NCBI RefSeq assembly: GCF_000204415.1 | Contig: NC_015416.1 | Coordinates: 1,426,001-1,490,000 of the forward strand | DNA: 64,000 bases | Reading direction: 5' to 3' | Source of the DNA: Methanothrix soehngenii GP6 | GTDB lineage: Archaea; Halobacteriota; Methanosarcinia; Methanotrichales; Methanotrichaceae | Part shown: positions 17,170-61,852 of the stretch, piece after piece | Numbering within the stretch: position 1 is the stretch's first letter | Layout: each line of letters begins with the position of its first letter | The notes under the pieces: generated by a model | Told to the model about the DNA's origin: nothing | What the model saw: only the letters and a program-made list of their open reading frames with translations | Databases searched by the model: none | Program-made: the position numbers and the translations under genes

Positions 17170-18063
17170 TTAATTTTCTCCAATGGCAACGGTCACCCTT
17201 CCGTATGCCTTCTTGGGAAGAATGAGCCTCTTTGCCAGGGCGAGGACTGCGGGCTCGGCAACTCCCGCCAGTCCCAGGTCCTCTGCCCTCGAGGGAGTGG
17301 AAGGTTTTTGGGAGTTGAGCTCCTCCCGGGAGAGAAAGACGATCTCCCTGTCTAGAGACTTCGCCGCCTCCAGCAGGCCCTCCTCCTCCTTCTTTAGCCA
17401 GGCGGTGGCTAAGAATGCTATATCCTCTCTCTTCCTGCCGGATTCCGCCAGGGCCTGGTCTATCGCTTGGAGGACCTCCTCAGAGGATACGCCCTTTCTG
17501 GCCCCCACACCCAAAACCAGCCCCTTTGCCTTGAGCACCGCCACATCTTCATCCACCAGCAGTATCTTAGGCCCCTTCAGCCTCAATATTGGGACGTCCT
17601 CTGTCAAGAATGCGAGGTTGATGGATTTTGAGGAGCTTTTGTTCACGATATCAGCCTTCAGCCGCCCGGCCACGCTCTCCAGGCAGGGCCGGCCCGAGGC
17701 ATCGGTGGCGGTGGTTATGGCCGGATAGAGCCCCATCCTTTCTGCTAAAAGCAGGGCCAGGTCATTGGCCCCGTGGTGGCCTCCTACCACCGGCACAGCG
17801 CAGCTGAGGGCGGAGTCGACGGCCACCACCGGCCGGTCTCGCCATTTGTCCTGCAGATGGCGGCAGAGGCTTCTGGTCACGATCCCCACCGCCATGATCG
17901 CTACCAGCAGATCGTATTTCTCAAGGAGCCTCTTCATCCTCTCCTCCTCATAAAGGACTAGAGTAGATTGATAGCGATCGCTTAAGGCCCGGGCAATCCT
18001 CTCTCCCTTATCCCTATCCCGGGGGAAGACCAGGATGGCCAGGGACTTCAGCGGCTCCGGTAT
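17170..18063 (-). CDS. cbiG: Cobalt-precorrin-5A hydrolase, probable non-AUG start
   Basis: 297 codons from an ATA at 18063, or 255 from the first ATG at 17937. The body matches Cbi[19 protein letters not shown], then [14 protein letters not shown], and a C-terminal domain. It opens the delta-lactone of cobalt-precorrin-5A with loss of acetaldehyde. The frame upstream of the ATG encodes the first strand and helix of the family ([24 protein letters not shown]), with no ATG, GTG or TTG back to the in-frame stop. An SD (AGGAGGT, 18071-18077) lies 7 nt before ATA 18063. It overlaps the end of cbiF. Confidence 0.85.
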
Positions 18064-18758
18064 AGGTGAGACCTCCTGTATCCCGTTCTCTTAACCACAT
18101 CGCCCACCAGTATGAGGGCGCTGTGGTCTATCTTCGCCTCTTCTACCTTATCGGCGATATCATCTATTGTTCCGCACAATACCTGCTGGTCCGGCCAGGA
18201 GGCGTGATAGACCACCGCCACCGGAGTTGTGCCCGGCAGGTCTAAGGACTGGACTATGTCCCTGATCTTGTCGATTCCCAGAAATATGGCCATGGTCGTT
18301 CCCAGGCGGCTGAGGGTGGGCAGGTCGTCCTTTGCCAGCGTGGTCCCTTTGGGCCTGGTTACGATCAGAGATTCAGAGATCCCCTTGAGGGTAAGCTGGG
18401 TCTTCAGAGCGGCGGAGGCGGCAAAGAGGGAGGAGACTCCGGGAACCACCTCCACCTCTATTCCCATCTCTTCCAGGGGTTTCATCTGCTCTAATATGGC
18501 GCCATAGATCGAAGGGTCGCCGCTGTGCAGTCGCACTACCTTCTTTCCCGCTCGCAGGAACTCGACCATCTTTGCCTGGGTCTCCTCTATAGACAGTCCA
18601 TTGCTGTCGACCTTGATGGCTCTCAATCCCTCCAGGAGCTGGGGGTTGACCAGAGAGCCGGCGTACACCACCAGGTCCGCCTCCTCCAAGAGCCTCTTGC
18701 CCTTGACGGTGATCAGCTCCGGGTCGCCCGGTCCCGCCCCTACGAAGTAGACCTTCAT
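18048..18758 (-). CDS. cbiF: Cobalt-precorrin-4 C11-methyltransferase
   Basis: 236 residues. [16 protein letters not shown] at the N-terminus and [16 protein letters not shown] in the middle are the SAM-binding loops; the pattern throughout is that of CbiF/CobM. It methylates C11. Its ATG overlaps the cbiL stop by 4 nt, and its own 3' end overlaps the extended cbiG. Confidence 0.93.
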
Positions 18759-27330: not shown

Positions 27331-27897
27331 TCAATTGCGGACTGTGATCCTCAGCACCATGAGCTTTTCAAAAAAGCATCCCTTGCTGGCCACCCGCTCT
27401 GTGATAAGCCCGGCGTCCCCTGCCATCATCTCCACCTCCTCCGGTCCGCTCAGGCTGGATATGAGCAGCAGTGCTCTTCCCCCCGGCCGGAGATGCTCCG
27501 CCAGATCGAGCAAGAACCGGCCTATGGTCTCCCTGCCGCTCTCCCCTCCGTCCAGGGCATAGTTGATCCATTGATCGCTTCTCTCTGCCTGTTTTGTGGG
27601 AAGGTAAGGGGGATTGAAGATGATCAGATCGAATTTCCCTCTTATTCCTTCGAAGAGGTCGGATCTTATCACCTCCACCCCTCTCTCCCTGGTCGCCCTG
27701 ACTGCATGAGGATTTATGTCCAGGGCGACAAGGCTCTCCACCTGTCTGGCCAATTCCAGGGATACGAGACCCGAACCGCAGCCTACCTCGAGCACATGAT
27801 CCTCTGGGCGGGCCTCTTTTATGGCCGCCTGCAAGAGGAGAAATGTATCCTCGTCCGGATGATAAACCTCACAAGACCCGAATCCTGGACAAATTAT
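27331..27897 (-). CDS. HemK2/Mtq2-like N-methyltransferase, probable non-AUG start
   Basis: 188 codons from ATA 27897, or 167 from the first ATG 27834. Class I methyltransferase with LEVGCGSGLVSLELA and the catalytic FNPPYLP motif, which methylates Gln or Lys amines; the nearest type is the HemK2/Mtq2 family acting on release factors. The family N-terminus (EVYHPDEDTFLLLQAAI) is encoded upstream of the ATG, with no ATG, GTG or TTG before an in-frame TAG. An SD GGAGG (27904-27908) lies 6 nt before the ATA. Confidence 0.85.
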   Translation of the reverse strand: MICPGFGSCEVYHPDEDTFLLLQAAIKEARPEDHVLEVGCGSGLVSLELARQVESLVALDINPHAVRATRERGVEVIRSDLFEGIRGKFDLIIFNPPYLPTKQAERSDQWINYALDGGESGRETIGRFLLDLAEHLRPGGRALLLISSLSGPEEVEMMAGDAGLITERVASKGCFFEKLMVLRITVRN

Positions 27898-27935
27898 CTC
27901 AATCCTCCAACGCGCCTAAATGCTCCTTTCCTTTT

Positions 27936-33597: not shown

Positions 33598-34056
33598 CTA
33601 CTCGTAGAGCCATTCTTCATCTATTCGCTTGTATGTCACCAGCTCGGAGGGATCAAAGTGAAGAGCGATCTCGCGAGATGCTGACGCCGGGGAGTCTGAG
33701 CCGTGCACCACATTCCGTCCCGTCTCAATGCCCCAGTCGCCGCGAATGGTTCCCGGTACGGCCTCCACTGGATTTGTGGCGCCGTTCATCTTTCTCATGG
33801 CGGCAATGGCACCCCTTCCCTCGACCACCAGGGAGACGGATGGTCCTGAGGTGATGAAGTCCACCAGATCCTGGTAGAACTTCTTGCCCACATGCTCTGC
33901 GTAATGCTCTTTAGCCTTCGCTTCAGGCATCGCAGCGAGCTTCATGGCAACGATCTTGAAGCCCTTCTCTTCAATACGTTGCAGGATCTTGCCCACCAGG
34001 CCTCTTTGCACTCCATCGGGCTTGACCATGACGAATGTTCTTTCGATATCCGCCAG
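33598..34056 (-). CDS. ndk: Nucleoside diphosphate kinase, probable non-AUG start
   Basis: 152 codons from a CTG at 34056, or 143 from the first ATG 34029. His motif VVHGSDSPASA is present with the phosphorylated His, and the N-terminal KPDGVQRGL. The conserved first strand (ERTFVMVKPDG) begins five residues before the ATG, and no ATG, GTG or TTG lies in frame back to the in-frame stop, which is the L24e stop codon itself. Candidate starts: CTG 34056, 8 nt after a G-run (34065-34069), or ATC 34047, which would give the canonical MERTFVMVKPDG. Transfers phosphate between nucleotides. Confidence 0.9.
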   Translation of the reverse strand: MADIERTFVMVKPDGVQRGLVGKILQRIEEKGFKIVAMKLAAMPEAKAKEHYAEHVGKKFYQDLVDFITSGPSVSLVVEGRGAIAAMRKMNGATNPVEAVPGTIRGDWGIETGRNVVHGSDSPASASREIALHFDPSELVTYKRIDEEWLYE

Positions 34057-44233: not shown

Positions 44234-44501
44234 TTATCTTCGTTATAATTTTAAACGTATCCCAGGGAAGAGGCGTCCACCTCCAGTCGGTTGGCATTAC
44301 CTGAAAAGCGGACAAGTATATATTTCATCCAGCCTATTATGCTATAGAAATGTCGTCCCTCCAAATGAACTCAAGCCAAGGAATGCAGCCCCGGGGATTG
44401 GATATTTCGTATGCATTTCGTCTTAGCCACCAATAGACTGTGCGGCGGAGATAGCGATGTTGGCAGAATTGCCGTCTGAGCATTGATTGGAGATGAAGAC
44501 A

Positions 44502-45545
44502 ATGGGAAAGACATATTCGACCGGGCTGATAGTATCGCCAGCAGAGATTCAGCATAATATGGCCATGTTTGTTGCCATGGCAAAGCTTCTGAGGGCGGTG
44601 GAGCATCCCTCTTCCTTTGACTGGAGGAGTATTGAGGGCGAAGACTTTACCACCCCCATCCGCGATCAGGGAAAATGCAGTAGCTCCGTTGCCTTCGCCA
44701 CCATCGCCCTGATGGAGTCCATGATAAAGATCGCAAATCAGGACCCCAAATTGCAGCCCGATCTCTCTGAGGCCTATCTTTTTCCCCGAGGAGGTGGAAA
44801 ATGCGAGAGCGGTGCTCAATTCGGGCGGATGCTCACGGCTGCAGAGTCCGGGGTTTGCGATGAGCTCTGCTGTCCTTATGCTGGAGACTGGAAGCCATGC
44901 CCGGATTTCAAGAGCAGATTGACTGCCATCACATTCTCTGAGACGATCTTCAGCCCGGAGCAGGCCAAAGCCCATATCGCCTCAACCGGCCCTCTAATGA
45001 GCGGCATGGCGGTCTATGCAGACTTCTTCGAGCATGATGGGGGGATTTATAGTCAGGATTATGGGAACTTCGTAGGCAACCATGCCATTCTGATCGTTGG
45101 CTATGACGAAGGGGAGGATTGCTGGATAGGGAAGAACTCCTGGGGTCTCACTTGGGGGGAGGGAGGGTGGTTCAGAATCAAGCAGGGAGAGTGCGGCATA
45201 GGCTCAGCTTTCCCATTCTATTCCGCTGCCATAGGCTTGAGTCCAGTTCTAGCCTTCCCACCGTCACCAGACATCGCCGCCCCGATCGACGGCACCTTGT
45301 ATGTAACCATGACCAGAGCCGGAGAACGCGATGTGATCTTGCTGGTGAACAATAGGGAGATCGGGGCGCTCACCTTGGGCGAGACCCTGACTGCAGGGGA
45401 GTTCAAGAGGGGTGATACCATCCAGTTCGACCTTGTGGGAATCGCTCATAAGAACGTCTGCTTCCCATCGGGCTGGAGGATATGGACTCTCAGGATGGAT
45501 GGAGGAAAGTACGAGTTCCGGGTTCTGGAGCGGGATAAACGATAA
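44502..45545 (+). CDS. Papain-fold (C1A) protein with Ser at the catalytic Cys position
   Basis: 347 residues from ATG 44502 (SD GGAG 9 nt upstream). Papain fold: oxyanion Gln and active-site segment DQGKCSSSVAFA (papain QGSCGSCWAF), His in NHAILIVGYDE, Asn in KNSWGLTWGEGG. The position of papain Cys25 is Ser (codon 44685-44687) and the following Trp is Val. The disulfide cysteine before it is kept. A C-terminal beta domain of about 100 residues follows. No signal peptide. It is either a pseudoprotease or a Ser-type variant, as in some Plasmodium SERA proteins. Confidence 0.85.
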   Translation: MGKTYSTGLIVSPAEIQHNMAMFVAMAKLLRAVEHPSSFDWRSIEGEDFTTPIRDQGKCSSSVAFATIALMESMIKIANQDPKLQPDLSEAYLFPRGGGKCESGAQFGRMLTAAESGVCDELCCPYAGDWKPCPDFKSRLTAITFSETIFSPEQAKAHIASTGPLMSGMAVYADFFEHDGGIYSQDYGNFVGNHAILIVGYDEGEDCWIGKNSWGLTWGEGGWFRIKQGECGIGSAFPFYSAAIGLSPVLAFPPSPDIAAPIDGTLYVTMTRAGERDVILLVNNREIGALTLGETLTAGEFKRGDTIQFDLVGIAHKNVCFPSGWRIWTLRMDGGKYEFRVLERDKR

Positions 45546-46387: not shown

Positions 46388-46750
46388 CTACTCCATATCG
46401 CCTTCTTCCACTGCCTCCCTGGGGGCAAGCATCAGATCGTTGAACAGCAGGATCTCAATCACCTGGGCAACATAACGCCTCTGCTGGAATCTCTGGATAT
46501 CCTGGTTCATCTTCAGCTCGGCATCGACCTGCACTCGGATCAGGCTAAGCCTCATATCCCTCTGCTCATCCTCCTTGATGCAGAGGCTGCATATTTCTTT
46601 GAGCAGCCAGGGAAGCCTCAATGGGTTGCGCAATGCTCGGGCCACGAGGAGAATATAGCCCTTCGGCTCTTTTACCTCATCCTCGCCGGTGAGCAACATC
46701 AGGTCTCCGAGAGAGAACTTCTCGCCGTTAATCGTTATGGTGTCATTCAA
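46388..46750 (-). CDS. Hypothetical protein downstream of cobY
   Basis: 120 residues, helical and charged, no membrane segment. Overlaps the 3' end of cobY by 4 nt, so it is in the cobYSZ operon. No family recognised. Confidence 0.6.
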   Translation of the reverse strand: MNDTITINGEKFSLGDLMLLTGEDEVKEPKGYILLVARALRNPLRLPWLLKEICSLCIKEDEQRDMRLSLIRVQVDAELKMNQDIQRFQQRRYVAQVIEILLFNDLMLAPREAVEEGDME

Positions 46751-47349
46751 ATAAAATCACCTTGCAGTATCCGCTCGCAGAGGCGGAGGTCCTCTGCCAC
46801 ATTCACATTCACTGCCAGCTCTATCCTCTCCATTATCAGATGATAATCCTCCTGCTCTCTCTCGATCTCTCCTCCGTCCAGCACATTGATCCCTGAGGGC
46901 ACGATCAGCTGGCCCCGGTAGTTGAAGAGGGAGTCGGGCCTCCGGCCCAGACGGCGGTGCAGATCCAGTGGAGTGTGGGTGGAGAGGGCTGGCTCAGGAC
47001 GTTCTTCATAGACCTCGATTATAGTATCGATGAGCTCGCTTGTGATCAGGGGCAGATCGGCCATGATGACCATTATGGGATCGGTAACCATTGCCTCATT
47101 CACCGCAGAGATCATGTCCGGGACAAAGCCCATCCCCGGAGTATCCACCACGGATAGGCTCCAATCCCGTGCCCAGGCCCGAGTGAGGGGCACATTCTCA
47201 GTGGTGGCGACGTAGATCTTCTCCACTGAGCTATCCTCCAGGGCCAGGGCTACATACTCAATCAACCTCCTGCCGAAGATCGTCACCATGGGCTTCTCTC
47301 CCCTATTCAGACGGGAGCCCCTTCCTCCAGCCATCACCAGAGCGTCCAG
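46747..47349 (-). CDS. cobY: Adenosylcobinamide-phosphate guanylyltransferase, probable CTG start
   Basis: 200 codons from CTG 47349. The nucleotidyltransferase signature MAGGRGSRLNRGEKPM sits near the N-terminus; the fold is that of archaeal CobY, which replaces bacterial CobU. The family begins MDALxMAGG; here CTG-GAC-GCT-CTG-GTG-ATG-GCT encodes exactly that if CTG starts. A strong SD (AGGAGGTG, 47357-47364) sits 7 nt before the CTG; GTG 47337 is 19 nt from it and would cut off the first strand. Overlaps cobS. Confidence 0.9.
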   Translation of the reverse strand: MDALVMAGGRGSRLNRGEKPMVTIFGRRLIEYVALALEDSSVEKIYVATTENVPLTRAWARDWSLSVVDTPGMGFVPDMISAVNEAMVTDPIMVIMADLPLITSELIDTIIEVYEERPEPALSTHTPLDLHRRLGRRPDSLFNYRGQLIVPSGINVLDGGEIEREQEDYHLIMERIELAVNVNVAEDLRLCERILQGDFI

Positions 47350-48098
47350 GGCAGAACACCTCCTAACGCCAGGGCGGCAGCGAGAGCAGTCACCCGTGCA
47401 ATCTCATTTGTCGCTCCAATGCCGTCACCAGTCGCTCCGCCGAAGTTTCTCTTCGAGACCCATACCAGGTAAAGTGCGGCCAGTTGGGCTGCGGCCAGGA
47501 TCGCCAGTCCGAGAGCTCCAAGGGCGAGTGAGCAGATGACCGCCGATATGACCAGGCCCAGGAGGAATTGGCCCTTATCCGTCCTCTGAATCATTATCTG
47601 CCCAAATCCCTTCTGCAGGGAGCTGGAGAAGGCAGCAAAGGATATCATAGCCTCTTTGGCACTGACCTCTGCGGTGAGAAGTGCCAGGGGCAAGAGCCTT
47701 TCCGGCAGGCTGGACAGGACGGCAAATGCCGCCAGGATTAAAACGACGATATACAGTCCTCCTCCGGTTCCCATGTATACGTCCTTCATCGCAGCGATCT
47801 TCTTCTCCCTTGTACCGTGAGCGATGACACCATCAGCAAAGTCTGCCAGGCCGTCGATGTGGTTTATGCCGCATAGCCAGTAGATAGCGACTATTACCAC
47901 TACGGCAACCAGGCTCGCCGGAAATGCCTGCAGAGCGATGTAGGATACCGTTCCCAGGATCGCCCCCAAAACCAAGCCCACCAGGGGAAAGACATAGACA
48001 TGGTTCATCAGGGCTTCCACCCCCTCCATGGATATGCCTACCGGTATGGCGGATAGCCATCCGAAGCCGGATTTAAGGGCGAACAAGAGGCCTTTCAA
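47334..48098 (-). CDS. cobS: Adenosylcobinamide-GDP ribazoletransferase (cobalamin synthase)
   Basis: 254 residues, multi-spanning membrane protein. NHIDGLADFADGVI and the C-terminal NFGGATGDGIGATNEI are CobS motifs. It joins GDP-cobinamide with alpha-ribazole in the membrane. Overlaps cobY and cobZ, confirming an operon. Confidence 0.95.
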   Translation of the reverse strand: MKGLLFALKSGFGWLSAIPVGISMEGVEALMNHVYVFPLVGLVLGAILGTVSYIALQAFPASLVAVVVIVAIYWLCGINHIDGLADFADGVIAHGTREKKIAAMKDVYMGTGGGLYIVVLILAAFAVLSSLPERLLPLALLTAEVSAKEAMISFAAFSSSLQKGFGQIMIQRTDKGQFLLGLVISAVICSLALGALGLAILAAAQLAALYLVWVSKRNFGGATGDGIGATNEIARVTALAAALALGGVLPWTLW

Positions 48099-50039: not shown

Positions 50040-50348
50040 TCAGGTGCTTATCTGGTCTGCGCCGAATCCCTTCTTGACCAGGATATCCTTGATCCTTTGT
50101 ATATGATTGCCTTGAAGCTCGATCAGACTGTCCTTTACCGTCCCGCCGCAGGCCAGCTTGGATTTCAGGTGAGTGCACAGCTCCTGCAGATCGATCTCAT
50201 GAGGATCAATGCCCTGGATAACTGTCACCTCTTTTCCATATCTACGCTTCTGAACTTTGACTACGATCCTTTGCTGCTCCTTGGCAACCTCCTCGCAGAT
50301 GCATAGCTCCTGTGGAAGGCCGCAGACGGCACACATTTGAGAACTCAT
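50040..50348 (-). CDS. sui1: Translation initiation factor 1 (SUI1/aIF1)
   Basis: 102 residues. N-terminal C-x2-C ... C-x-C group ([15 protein letters not shown]) typical of archaeal aIF1, then the SUI1 fold ([27 protein letters not shown]). It controls start-codon selection on the small subunit, which bears on the unusual start codons suggested in this window. Confidence 0.93.
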
Positions 50349-60666: not shown

Positions 60667-61523
60667 AACCTCAGATACCTATCATGTTTGGTTCGCTTTT
60701 CGCTATCTGTGAGGTGCAGATACTTTTCTGTAGTTTTGATGTCCTGTGCCGTAAAAGTTCTTTAACCGTGAGCAGGTCACACCCTCGATTTAGTAATAGT
60801 GTGGCGCTGCTATGCCTGAAGAAGACATGGACCCCGCCAGGCTTGGTTATCCCGGACCGCTCTTTACATCTTCGAAAGATATTGTAAATTTGGGTCCGAT
60901 CATATCTCTTATTCCTGTTGCTGTAAAATAGGGGGGGGTTGCTTCCCATCAATGATCTTTTTGGGCCGGACTTTCAAATATTTTCTCAATGTGTCAATGC
61001 AGATATCATTGAGGTATAGGATTGCGTCTTTATCATTCTTACCGCCCCTAATTCTTATCGTTTTATTGATCAGATCAATATCCGAATCATCTAGGTTCGC
61101 TACTTCTGAGGCCCGGAGAGAGGCATAAAAACCTATCTGCAATACACATAAGTATTTTATATTAGTAATTGCATTAAATATGGCCCGTATATCATTTTCA
61201 TCGAAGTAATATGGGAGTTTGCTTCCCATTTTGAGGAAAGGGAGTTTGATAGGCGCGCCGATCATCTGATGATAGTTTTTCATCACGAATGAGTAGTTAT
61301 TAATGGAGCTTCGCGACAATCGGCGGTCAATCAGACTATCTCTGAATCGCTCTGCATCTGCAAGATCAGGGCTGATAGTATCACAAAACGCTAGATAACG
61401 GCGCAATCTATTAACGTAGTCGTTAATGGTGGAGTCTCTGAAGCCCATGCTTCTGATATGGTGCTCAAATCGGTTCGCGGCCTGATCGACCGCAGGCATT
61501 TCATAGTTGATCTGCTTCGACAT
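60663..61523 (-). pseudogene. Tyrosine recombinase (integrase) with two frameshifts
   Basis: Start ATG 61523 (MSKQINYEMPAVD). A SAM-like N-terminal domain, then the catalytic domain. Read through two single-base shifts, the catalytic residues are all there: Arg (SLRASEV), Lys (GGKNDKD), HVFFRH, RH (KELLRH) and Tyr (TTEKYLHLTD). Shift 1 is at a run of eight C (60931-60938); shift 2 is a missing base near 60741-60744. Restored length about 287 residues. Either recently inactivated or sequence errors. Confidence 0.85.
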
Positions 61524-61599
61524 GCTTTTAACCTCACGAAGCAGTGAGTACCCCGCCCCTACGCTTCGGGGGGCAGGAGTAAGGAAAAACGATAGCAAG

Positions 61600-61645
61600 C
61601 GCGGGGGTTGCCAAGTGGTTAAAGGCGCAGGGCTTAGGACCCTGT
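61600..61645 (+). repeat. Direct-repeat copy 2 (att site inside the intact tRNA)
   Basis: Identical to 58251-58296; covers the 5' half of the tRNA-Leu gene. Confidence 0.9.
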
Positions 61646-61683
61646 CACGAAGGTGTTCGCGGGTTCGACTCCCGTCCTCCGCA
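61601..61683 (+). tRNA. tRNA-Leu (UAG)
   Basis: 83 nt, class II. Acceptor GCGGGGG pairs with the 3' CCTCCGC; anticodon stem CAGGG/CCCTG with loop CTTAGGA, anticodon TAG; variable arm CAC-GAAG-GTG; T arm with TTCGACT. No box A is evident in the 40 nt upstream, which come from the element; the host promoter is left at 58200-58250. Confidence 0.95.
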
Positions 61684-61852
61684 TCTATACCTCTTTCTGA
61701 TAGCACTTTTTAGGGCTCGTCCTAATTTACTCCGATCTAATTAGGGGTCTCTTGTGATATACACTTTTCCGAGATAAGGGGACAACCCTGTCCTCCATTT
61801 AATGGCTTTGCATCCGTAATGAGTTTAAATCTTTGTGAGATTTGACTACATG

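What the first reader, a model, noticed from the sequence alone, without database searches (positions are those of the whole stretch)
47338..47364. CobY appears to start at CTG after a perfect Shine-Dalgarno
CTG at 47349 gives exactly the family N-terminus (MDALVMAGG). AGGAGGTG lies 7 nt upstream. The alternative GTG is 19 nt away and truncates the nucleotide-binding strand. This is the best of five similar cases in the window (cbiG, HemK2-like, ndk, TPR gene), which together suggest relaxed start-codon selection.
Basis: partly seen in the sequence, partly recalled or inferred. Interest (0 to 1): 0.7.

Follow-up and report, generated by a model that had tools for sequence, protein, structure and literature searches.

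The report
Conserved CTG start of archaeal cobY
A vitamin-B12 gene of a methane-making archaeon really does seem to begin at the unusual start codon CTG, a feature shared by most of its relatives, and a few other genes of the same group begin at similarly unusual codons that automatic gene finders miss.

Summary
In detail: on the minus strand AGGAGGTG (47364-47357) stands 7 nt before CTG (47349-47347), which aligns with Met-1 of solved CobY. Comparison decides the start. In 23 Methanotrichaceae rows the codon is CTG 16, TTG 4, ATG 3; in 11 more distant rows ATG 6, TTG 5. The first 16 nt of cobY overlap cobS, and substitutions switch from the cobS frame to the cobY frame exactly at this codon, also among CTG-bearing rows alone. 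So GTG 47337 or ATG 47334 cannot be the main start, and a sequencing error is excluded. Elsewhere, CTG and ATT replace canonical starts in two more genes of this genome, and CTG in one gene of a relative. A scan for SD plus CTG showed no clear excess; initiator tRNA stem and aIF1 loop look normal. Near-cognate starts are real but uncommon here (3-4 of 161 orthologue pairs); no general relaxation of the machinery is shown. No peptide or ribosome-profiling data were available.

The parts
47347..47349 (-). CTG start codon of cobY
   Evidence: CTG in 16 of 23 family rows, TTG 4, ATG 3; frame of selection switches here; aligns with Met-1 of 3RSB/2MZB
47357..47364 (-). Shine-Dalgarno AGGAGGTG, 7 nt before CTG (9 nt from AGGAGG)
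   Evidence: kept or nearly kept in most rows; 16S 3' end ...GGATCACCTCCT
46747..47349 (-). cobY-like gene (adenosylcobinamide-phosphate guanylyltransferase), 200 codons from CTG plus stop
47334..48098 (-). cobS (adenosylcobinamide-GDP ribazoletransferase); its last 16 nt overlap the start of cobY, stop TGA 47336-47334
   Evidence: TIGR00317 above cut-off; overlap kept in relatives
47332..47337 (-). rival starts GTG 47337 (GTGA overlap) and ATG 47334 (TGATG overlap)
   Evidence: disfavoured: codons 2-5, at and upstream of them, are under cobY-frame selection
34054..34056 (-). CTG start codon of ndk (gene 34056..33598), just after the stop of an rpl24e-like gene
   Evidence: CTG in 23 of 24 rows, TTG in 1; third base of codon 1 never changes while third bases of codons 2 and 3 change 8 and 5 times; rpl24e named from recall of its sequence only
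18061..18063 (-). ATA start codon of cbiG (gene 18063..17170), overlapping the cbiF end by 16 nt
   Evidence: ATA in 25 of 25 rows captured; zero changes in 23 rows on the tree
18071..18077 (-). Shine-Dalgarno AGGAGGT of cbiG, 7 nt before ATA
   Evidence: GAG GTC TCA invariant in 23 rows, including three cbiF wobble sites
27892..27906 (-). HemK2-like gene: AGG ATT GAG ATA ATT, possible ATA/ATT start after TTGGAGG; undecided
   Evidence: no canonical start before VYHPDEDTF; N-terminus not conserved, many relatives have ATG at varying places

Best explanation
cobY is translated from CTG 47349-47347. The anti-SD of 16S rRNA pairs with AGGAGGTG inside the end of cobS and places CTG in the P site. 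Initiator Met-tRNA (anticodon CAU) then accepts CUG with one mismatch at the first codon base, so the protein should begin Met-Asp-Ala-Leu-Val-Met-Ala-Gly-Gly. Ribosomes finishing cobS, whose stop lies 13 nt downstream, probably add to local initiation. The first base of the start codon is also the free third base of a CobS proline codon; it therefore drifts among C, T and A across the family, which is how CTG could arise and persist. Shown here by sequence comparison: the place of the start, the conserved CTG and SD, and the change of selected frame. Inferred: the Met at position 1, the pairing, the coupling with cobS, and a lower output than from ATG.
For: Codon 1 is CTG 16, TTG 4, ATG 3 in 23 Methanotrichaceae rows and ATG 6, TTG 5 in 11 rows of other families. 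Parsimony changes by codon position 1/2/3: upstream 78/37/22, codon 1 7/0/0, codons 2-5 2/0/11, codons 6-12 4/4/46; in CTG rows only, 47/23/11, then 2/0/6, then 2/2/29. Fisher upstream vs codons 2-5: p = 1.7e-5 (all rows) and 0.003 (CTG rows). 13 of 16 CTG rows have no ATG/GTG/TTG between the upstream in-frame stop and codon 1. The aligned position is Met-1 of M. jannaschii CobY and position 1 of NF045495. First-base composition C16 T4 A3 G0 resembles proline codons before T in this genome: CCC 1115, CCA 521, CCT 446, CCG 208.
Against: No peptide, ribosome-profiling or reporter evidence. The 'TG' of codon 1 is also fixed by a CobS Trp codon, so NTG conservation alone proves little. SD+CTG is not clearly enriched genome-wide. 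3 of 16 CTG rows have a canonical codon further upstream in frame. Most rows are unnamed draft or metagenome-assembled genomes. The protein scores below the curated cut-offs of TIGR00454 (139.8 of 174.7) and NF045495 (105.5 of 250), so the enzyme name rests on homology and the cobS neighbour.
Confidence: 0.9

Rival explanations
1. Classical coupled start at the cobS stop: GTGA (47337) or TGATG (47334), giving MMAGG... or MAGG....
For: GTGA and TGATG overlaps are present; the ATG is present in all 34 rows printed; short overlaps of this kind are typical of coupled genes (PMC10666635, abstract in the search listing only).
Against: Codons 2-5 are under cobY-frame selection, also in CTG rows; GTG is lost in some rows (GTA, CTG); the ATG is also the conserved Met of the MAGG motif; these starts lie 19-22 nt from the SD; they would remove the first residues of the family fold.
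Confidence: 0.05
2. Two starts are used: CTG for the full protein and GTG/ATG for a shorter, minor product.
For: Both sites coexist and termination of cobS lies at the second one.
Against: Nothing indicates that a protein without the first strand folds; no separate SD for the inner start was seen by eye.
Confidence: 0.1
3. CobY is made as a CobS-CobY fusion by a -1 frameshift before the cobS stop.
For: The frames overlap by 16 nt with an SD-like stretch just upstream, which can stimulate -1 shifts (recalled).
Against: Seven of 23 family rows and all 11 other rows have ATG or TTG at the same place; no classical slippery heptamer was seen by eye.
Confidence: 0.01
4. Sequencing error at the start codon of this genome.
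For: One base would turn CTG into ATG, GTG or TTG.
Against: CTG is shared by 16 of 23 rows from independent genomes.
Confidence: 0.005

Closest known systems
CobY of M. jannaschii (2MZB, 3RSB)
   Same: Homologous along the whole length, with N-terminus at the same residue.
   Different: Its database sequence starts with Met; here the codon is CTG. Scores lie below the NCBIfam cut-offs.
Suspected CTG start of Haloferax volcanii HVO_1510 and relatives (PMC8305020, passage read)
   Same: Archaeal gene whose conserved N-terminus lies before any canonical start in several species; an in-frame CTG is one proposal, and peptides upstream of the next Met were found.
   Different: There start codons vary and some orthologues are broken; here CTG is aligned with ATG/TTG in relatives, has an SD, and marks a switch of selected frame.
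CTG-started small ORFs of Methanosarcina mazei by Ribo-seq (PMC11456600, passages read)
   Same: CTG initiation in a related methanogen: 5% of the unannotated small ORFs.
   Different: Those are unannotated small ORFs; here it is a conserved biosynthetic enzyme gene.
Rare AUG-to-CUG/AUU start switches in prokaryotes (PMC5622118, passages read)
   Same: The same kind of switch: 2 to CUG and 1 to AUU among 61,358 ancestral AUG starts.
   Different: That count rests on annotated starts; here CTG is kept across a genus, and an ATA start is invariant.

Membership tests
CobY (adenosylcobinamide-phosphate guanylyltransferase) | Homology to solved CobY over the whole length, same N-terminus | tested here: met
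   phmmer E 9.8e-24 (2MZB) and 9.3e-23 (3RSB), query 19-216 to chain 1-194
CobY (adenosylcobinamide-phosphate guanylyltransferase) | Curated score cut-offs of NF045495 / TIGR00454 | tested here: not met
   105.5 of 250 and 139.8 of 174.7 bits; the name is therefore 'CobY-like', supported by the adjacent cobS
CobY (adenosylcobinamide-phosphate guanylyltransferase) | GTP:AdoCbi-P guanylyltransferase activity | not testable with these tools
   needs an assay
Near-cognate (CUG) initiation site | SD at the spacing used by ATG starts | tested here: met
   9 nt from AGGAGG; ATG starts of this genome mostly 7-11
Near-cognate (CUG) initiation site | Coding selection begins at that codon | tested here: met
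Near-cognate (CUG) initiation site | Canonical start at the same place in relatives | tested here: met
   ATG/TTG in 7 of 23 family rows and 11 of 11 others
Near-cognate (CUG) initiation site | N-terminal peptide or initiating-ribosome footprint | not testable with these tools
   no such data held
Coupled overlap start (NTGA/TGATG) | Coding of the second gene begins at the overlap codon | tested here: not met
   codons 2-4, upstream of it, already change in the cobY pattern
Genome-wide relaxed initiation | Excess of SD plus CTG/ATA/ATT/ATC over background | tested here: inconclusive
   with SD of at least 5 / 6 nt: CTG 1.43 / 1.69, ATA 0.92 / 1.48, ATT 0.75 / 0.96, ATC 0.93 / 0.72 times background; no clear excess
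Genome-wide relaxed initiation | Altered initiator tRNA or aIF1 | tested here: not met
   initiator tRNA keeps GGG-CTCATAA-CCC; one aIF1 with loop KRRYGK (judged usual from recall); other factors not examined

The most novel reading that the evidence does not exclude
The genus Methanothrix keeps a set of near-cognate start codons under purifying selection, e.g. CUG in ndk and AUA in cbiG besides CUG in cobY. They would act as deliberately weak, termination-coupled or SD-driven starts that set protein ratios inside operons, in roughly 1-2% of genes. This would mean an archaeal lineage with lower start-codon stringency than annotation pipelines assume.
Probability: 0.35. Interest if true: 0.7.

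Novelty: new member of a known kind. Interest (0 to 1): 0.55.

Why it matters
Conserved CTG and ATA starts in enzymes of central pathways show that gene calling limited to ATG/GTG/TTG cuts off or misplaces real N-termini in a widespread group of methane producers. The switch of selected frame in overlapping genes is a purely computational way to locate start codons, and makes the question of how strict archaeal initiation is testable with existing genomes and proteomes. An invariant AUA start would be unusual for any prokaryote.

Tried and rejected
The background is large because most positions upstream of a canonical start are non-coding.

(2) Pairwise comparison with one relative (G012, 710 kb): 203 orthologue-like pairs, 42 from contigs chosen near the window and 161 others. 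In 66 of 203 the homology began at least 4 codons before the first canonical start. On reading these, most were conserved overlaps or leaders with ordinary starts. Additional convincing cases: a membrane protein (G000:C1:850252, CTG; 15 relatives have GTG 6, TTG 8, ATG 1; a sixteenth printed row, L287, has a stop inside and was left out) and a dCTP-deaminase-like protein (name from recall of the sequence; G000:C1:232934, ATT; the 10 relatives captured by my motif, of 22 other loci fetched, all have ATG). One more case is in G012: a P-type-ATPase-like gene (name from recall) with CTG where G000 has TTG. A symporter with ACG opposite ATG (q747) is possible only. Rejected: q798 (the methylase domain of that ORF starts near residue 103), and q1006, q18, q137, q247, q392, q1219, q1274.

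(3) A broken initiator tRNA: my first pattern, written from recall, found nothing in 26 genomes. A shorter one found the gene, and it is normal in its anticodon stem. I also looked by eye for an altered aIF1 loop and at some 16S motifs (several of my recalled strings were absent, so that check is weak).

(4) A frameshift fusion and a sequencing error: see rivals.

(5) The TPR gene: no clear orthologue.

Full report
WHAT IS THERE. The window is positions 1,426,001-1,490,000 of a 3,008,626-base contig in a two-contig genome of 3,026,645 bases. The sizes match Methanosaeta concilii (Methanothrix soehngenii) GP6 as I recall them; no call names the genome. Named relatives found with the protein are Methanotrichaceae. 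On the minus strand the cobY frame is open from 47403 to the stop at 46747, and its first ATG/GTG/TTG is GTG 47337. AGGAGGTG lies at 47364-47357 and CTG at 47349-47347, 7 nt apart. cobS precedes it and ends with TGA 47336-47334, so cobY from CTG overlaps cobS by 16 nt. The protein from CTG matches solved CobY from its first residue but stays under the curated NCBIfam cut-offs, so I call it CobY-like.

WHERE DOES IT START. I aligned the junction in 23 Methanotrichaceae rows (19 of the same genus, this genome included, plus 4 named loci) and 11 rows of other families. Of 41 genomes searched, 36 had a match and 30 were cut out as loci; all 30 could be read at the start. Codon 1 is CTG in 16, TTG in 4 and ATG in 3 of the 23, and ATG in 6 and TTG in 5 of the 11. 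That alone is not proof, because the TG is shared with a Trp codon of CobS in nearly all rows. The better test is which frame selection protects. On a tree from codons 9 onward, parsimony changes at cobY codon positions 1/2/3 are 78/37/22 in the 12 codons upstream (wobble of cobS), 7/0/0 in codon 1, 2/0/11 in codons 2-5 and 4/4/46 in codons 6-12. With the 16 CTG rows alone the figures are 47/23/11, 2/0/6 and 2/2/29. In codons 2-5 most changes are silent in cobY but change CobS (Thr/Met, Leu/Pro), or concern only its stop. So residues 2-5 are part of CobY also where the codon is CTG, and a start at GTG 47337 or ATG 47334 cannot make the selected product. CTG is the only start-like codon near the SD; 13 of 16 CTG rows have no canonical codon upstream in frame before a stop.

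WHY CTG. The free first base is the third base of a CobS codon that is proline in most rows. Its composition (C16, T4, A3, G0) is like that of proline codons before T in this genome (CCC 1115, CCA 521, CCT 446, CCG 208), and it changed 7 times on the tree. The simplest reading is drift at a wobble site among start codons that work well enough, with a good SD and ribosomes arriving from cobS. Selection for a weak start is possible but not shown for cobY.

THE OTHER CASES. ndk: codon 1 is CTG in 23 of 24 rows and TTG in one. The upstream gene stops one codon before it in most rows, and 12 of 24 rows have no canonical start before codon 10, inside VMVKPD; 10 have one at codon 4 and one at codon 2, so in those rows a second start is not excluded. 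Codons 2 and 3 show silent changes (8 and 5 at third positions), whereas codon 1 shows only one change, to TTG (23 rows on the tree). No gene overlaps it, so here CTG itself is conserved. ndk has no strong SD by eye; it may depend on the stop just upstream. cbiG: AGGAGGT, 7 nt, ATA. ATA is present in all 25 rows captured from 27 loci (two of them are fragments of genomes already counted); 23 rows went into the tree, with no change in ATA or in GAG GTC TCA, although four of these bases are wobble sites of cbiF. The A is the third base of a CbiF Leu codon, and A-ending Leu codons are about 10% of Leu codons in this genome. 23 of 25 rows have no canonical start between ATA and the conserved AILVF-like block; 2 have one. 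The leader between ATA and that block is not conserved in the cbiG frame, so for cbiG the start rests on the SD and the invariant ATA. HemK2-like: the leader is not conserved, so the SD-led ATA/ATT is only a candidate. TPR: not testable.

BEYOND THE WINDOW. Among 203 orthologue-like pairs between 1.65 Mb of this genome and 710 kb of a relative, 161 from contigs not chosen for the window, I found CTG (membrane protein) and ATT (dCTP-deaminase-like) in this genome where relatives have canonical starts, CTG in the relative where this genome has TTG, and one possible ACG. That is 3-4 of 161 pairs. All are one base from ATG. In 196 of 203 pairs a canonical codon is shared near the start, so canonical starts remain the rule. 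For scale, an annotation-based study counted 2 AUG-to-CUG and 1 AUG-to-AUU switch in 61,358 (PMC5622118, passages read); annotation seldom allows CTG, so the two rates are not directly comparable. I had no letters left for a control genus.

MACHINERY. The initiator tRNA keeps the three G-C pairs of its anticodon stem. The single SUI1-domain gene found is aIF1, in this window, and its basic loop looks usual from recall. aIF1 is the factor that destabilises complexes on non-AUG mRNA in archaea (PMC6237735, passages read). Nothing points to a defect.

LITERATURE. CTG starts are suspected in Haloferax (PMC8305020, passage read) and counted in M. mazei small ORFs (PMC11456600, passages read). Searches for Methanosaeta with 'CTG start codon' and Methanothrix with 'start codon' and 'near-cognate' found no paper; 'CTG start codon' with archaea and 'conserved' found two papers, judged irrelevant from the listing. 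Only open-licence papers are held.

VERDICT. It is a new member of a known kind (near-cognate initiation). The more surprising part is that CTG of ndk and ATA of cbiG are kept throughout the genus.

Noticed in passing
window 50040-50348 (-): aIF1 (SUI1 family), the initiation-fidelity factor, is encoded about 2.7 kb from cobY; it is the only SUI1 match in the genome.
   Followed up: partly
window 60909-61709 (-) and 61601-61683 (+): A phage-integrase-family gene overlaps a tRNA-Leu (TAG) gene on the other strand, a layout known from integrated archaeal elements (the parallel is recalled).
   Followed up: no
window 44487-45545 (+): Papain-like protease ORF reading QGKCSSSVAFA where papain family members usually have QGxCGSCWAF (recalled): the catalytic Cys position seems to be Ser (translation).
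   Followed up: no
window 18048-18063 and 47334-47349 (-): The cbiF/cbiG and cobS/cobY junctions have the same 16-nt overlap, the same phase, and an SD 7 nt before a non-canonical start.
   Followed up: partly
L268 (G000:C1:232934-232936): dCTP-deaminase-like gene has ATT after GAGGTG where the 10 relatives captured have ATG.
   Followed up: yes
G000:C1:850252-850254: Membrane-protein gene has CTG where 15 relatives have GTG, TTG or ATG.
   Followed up: yes
L066, L067, L072: In three relatives the cbiG frame has a TAG just before the SD (TAG GAG GTC TCA), so nothing further upstream can be the cbiG start there.
   Followed up: no
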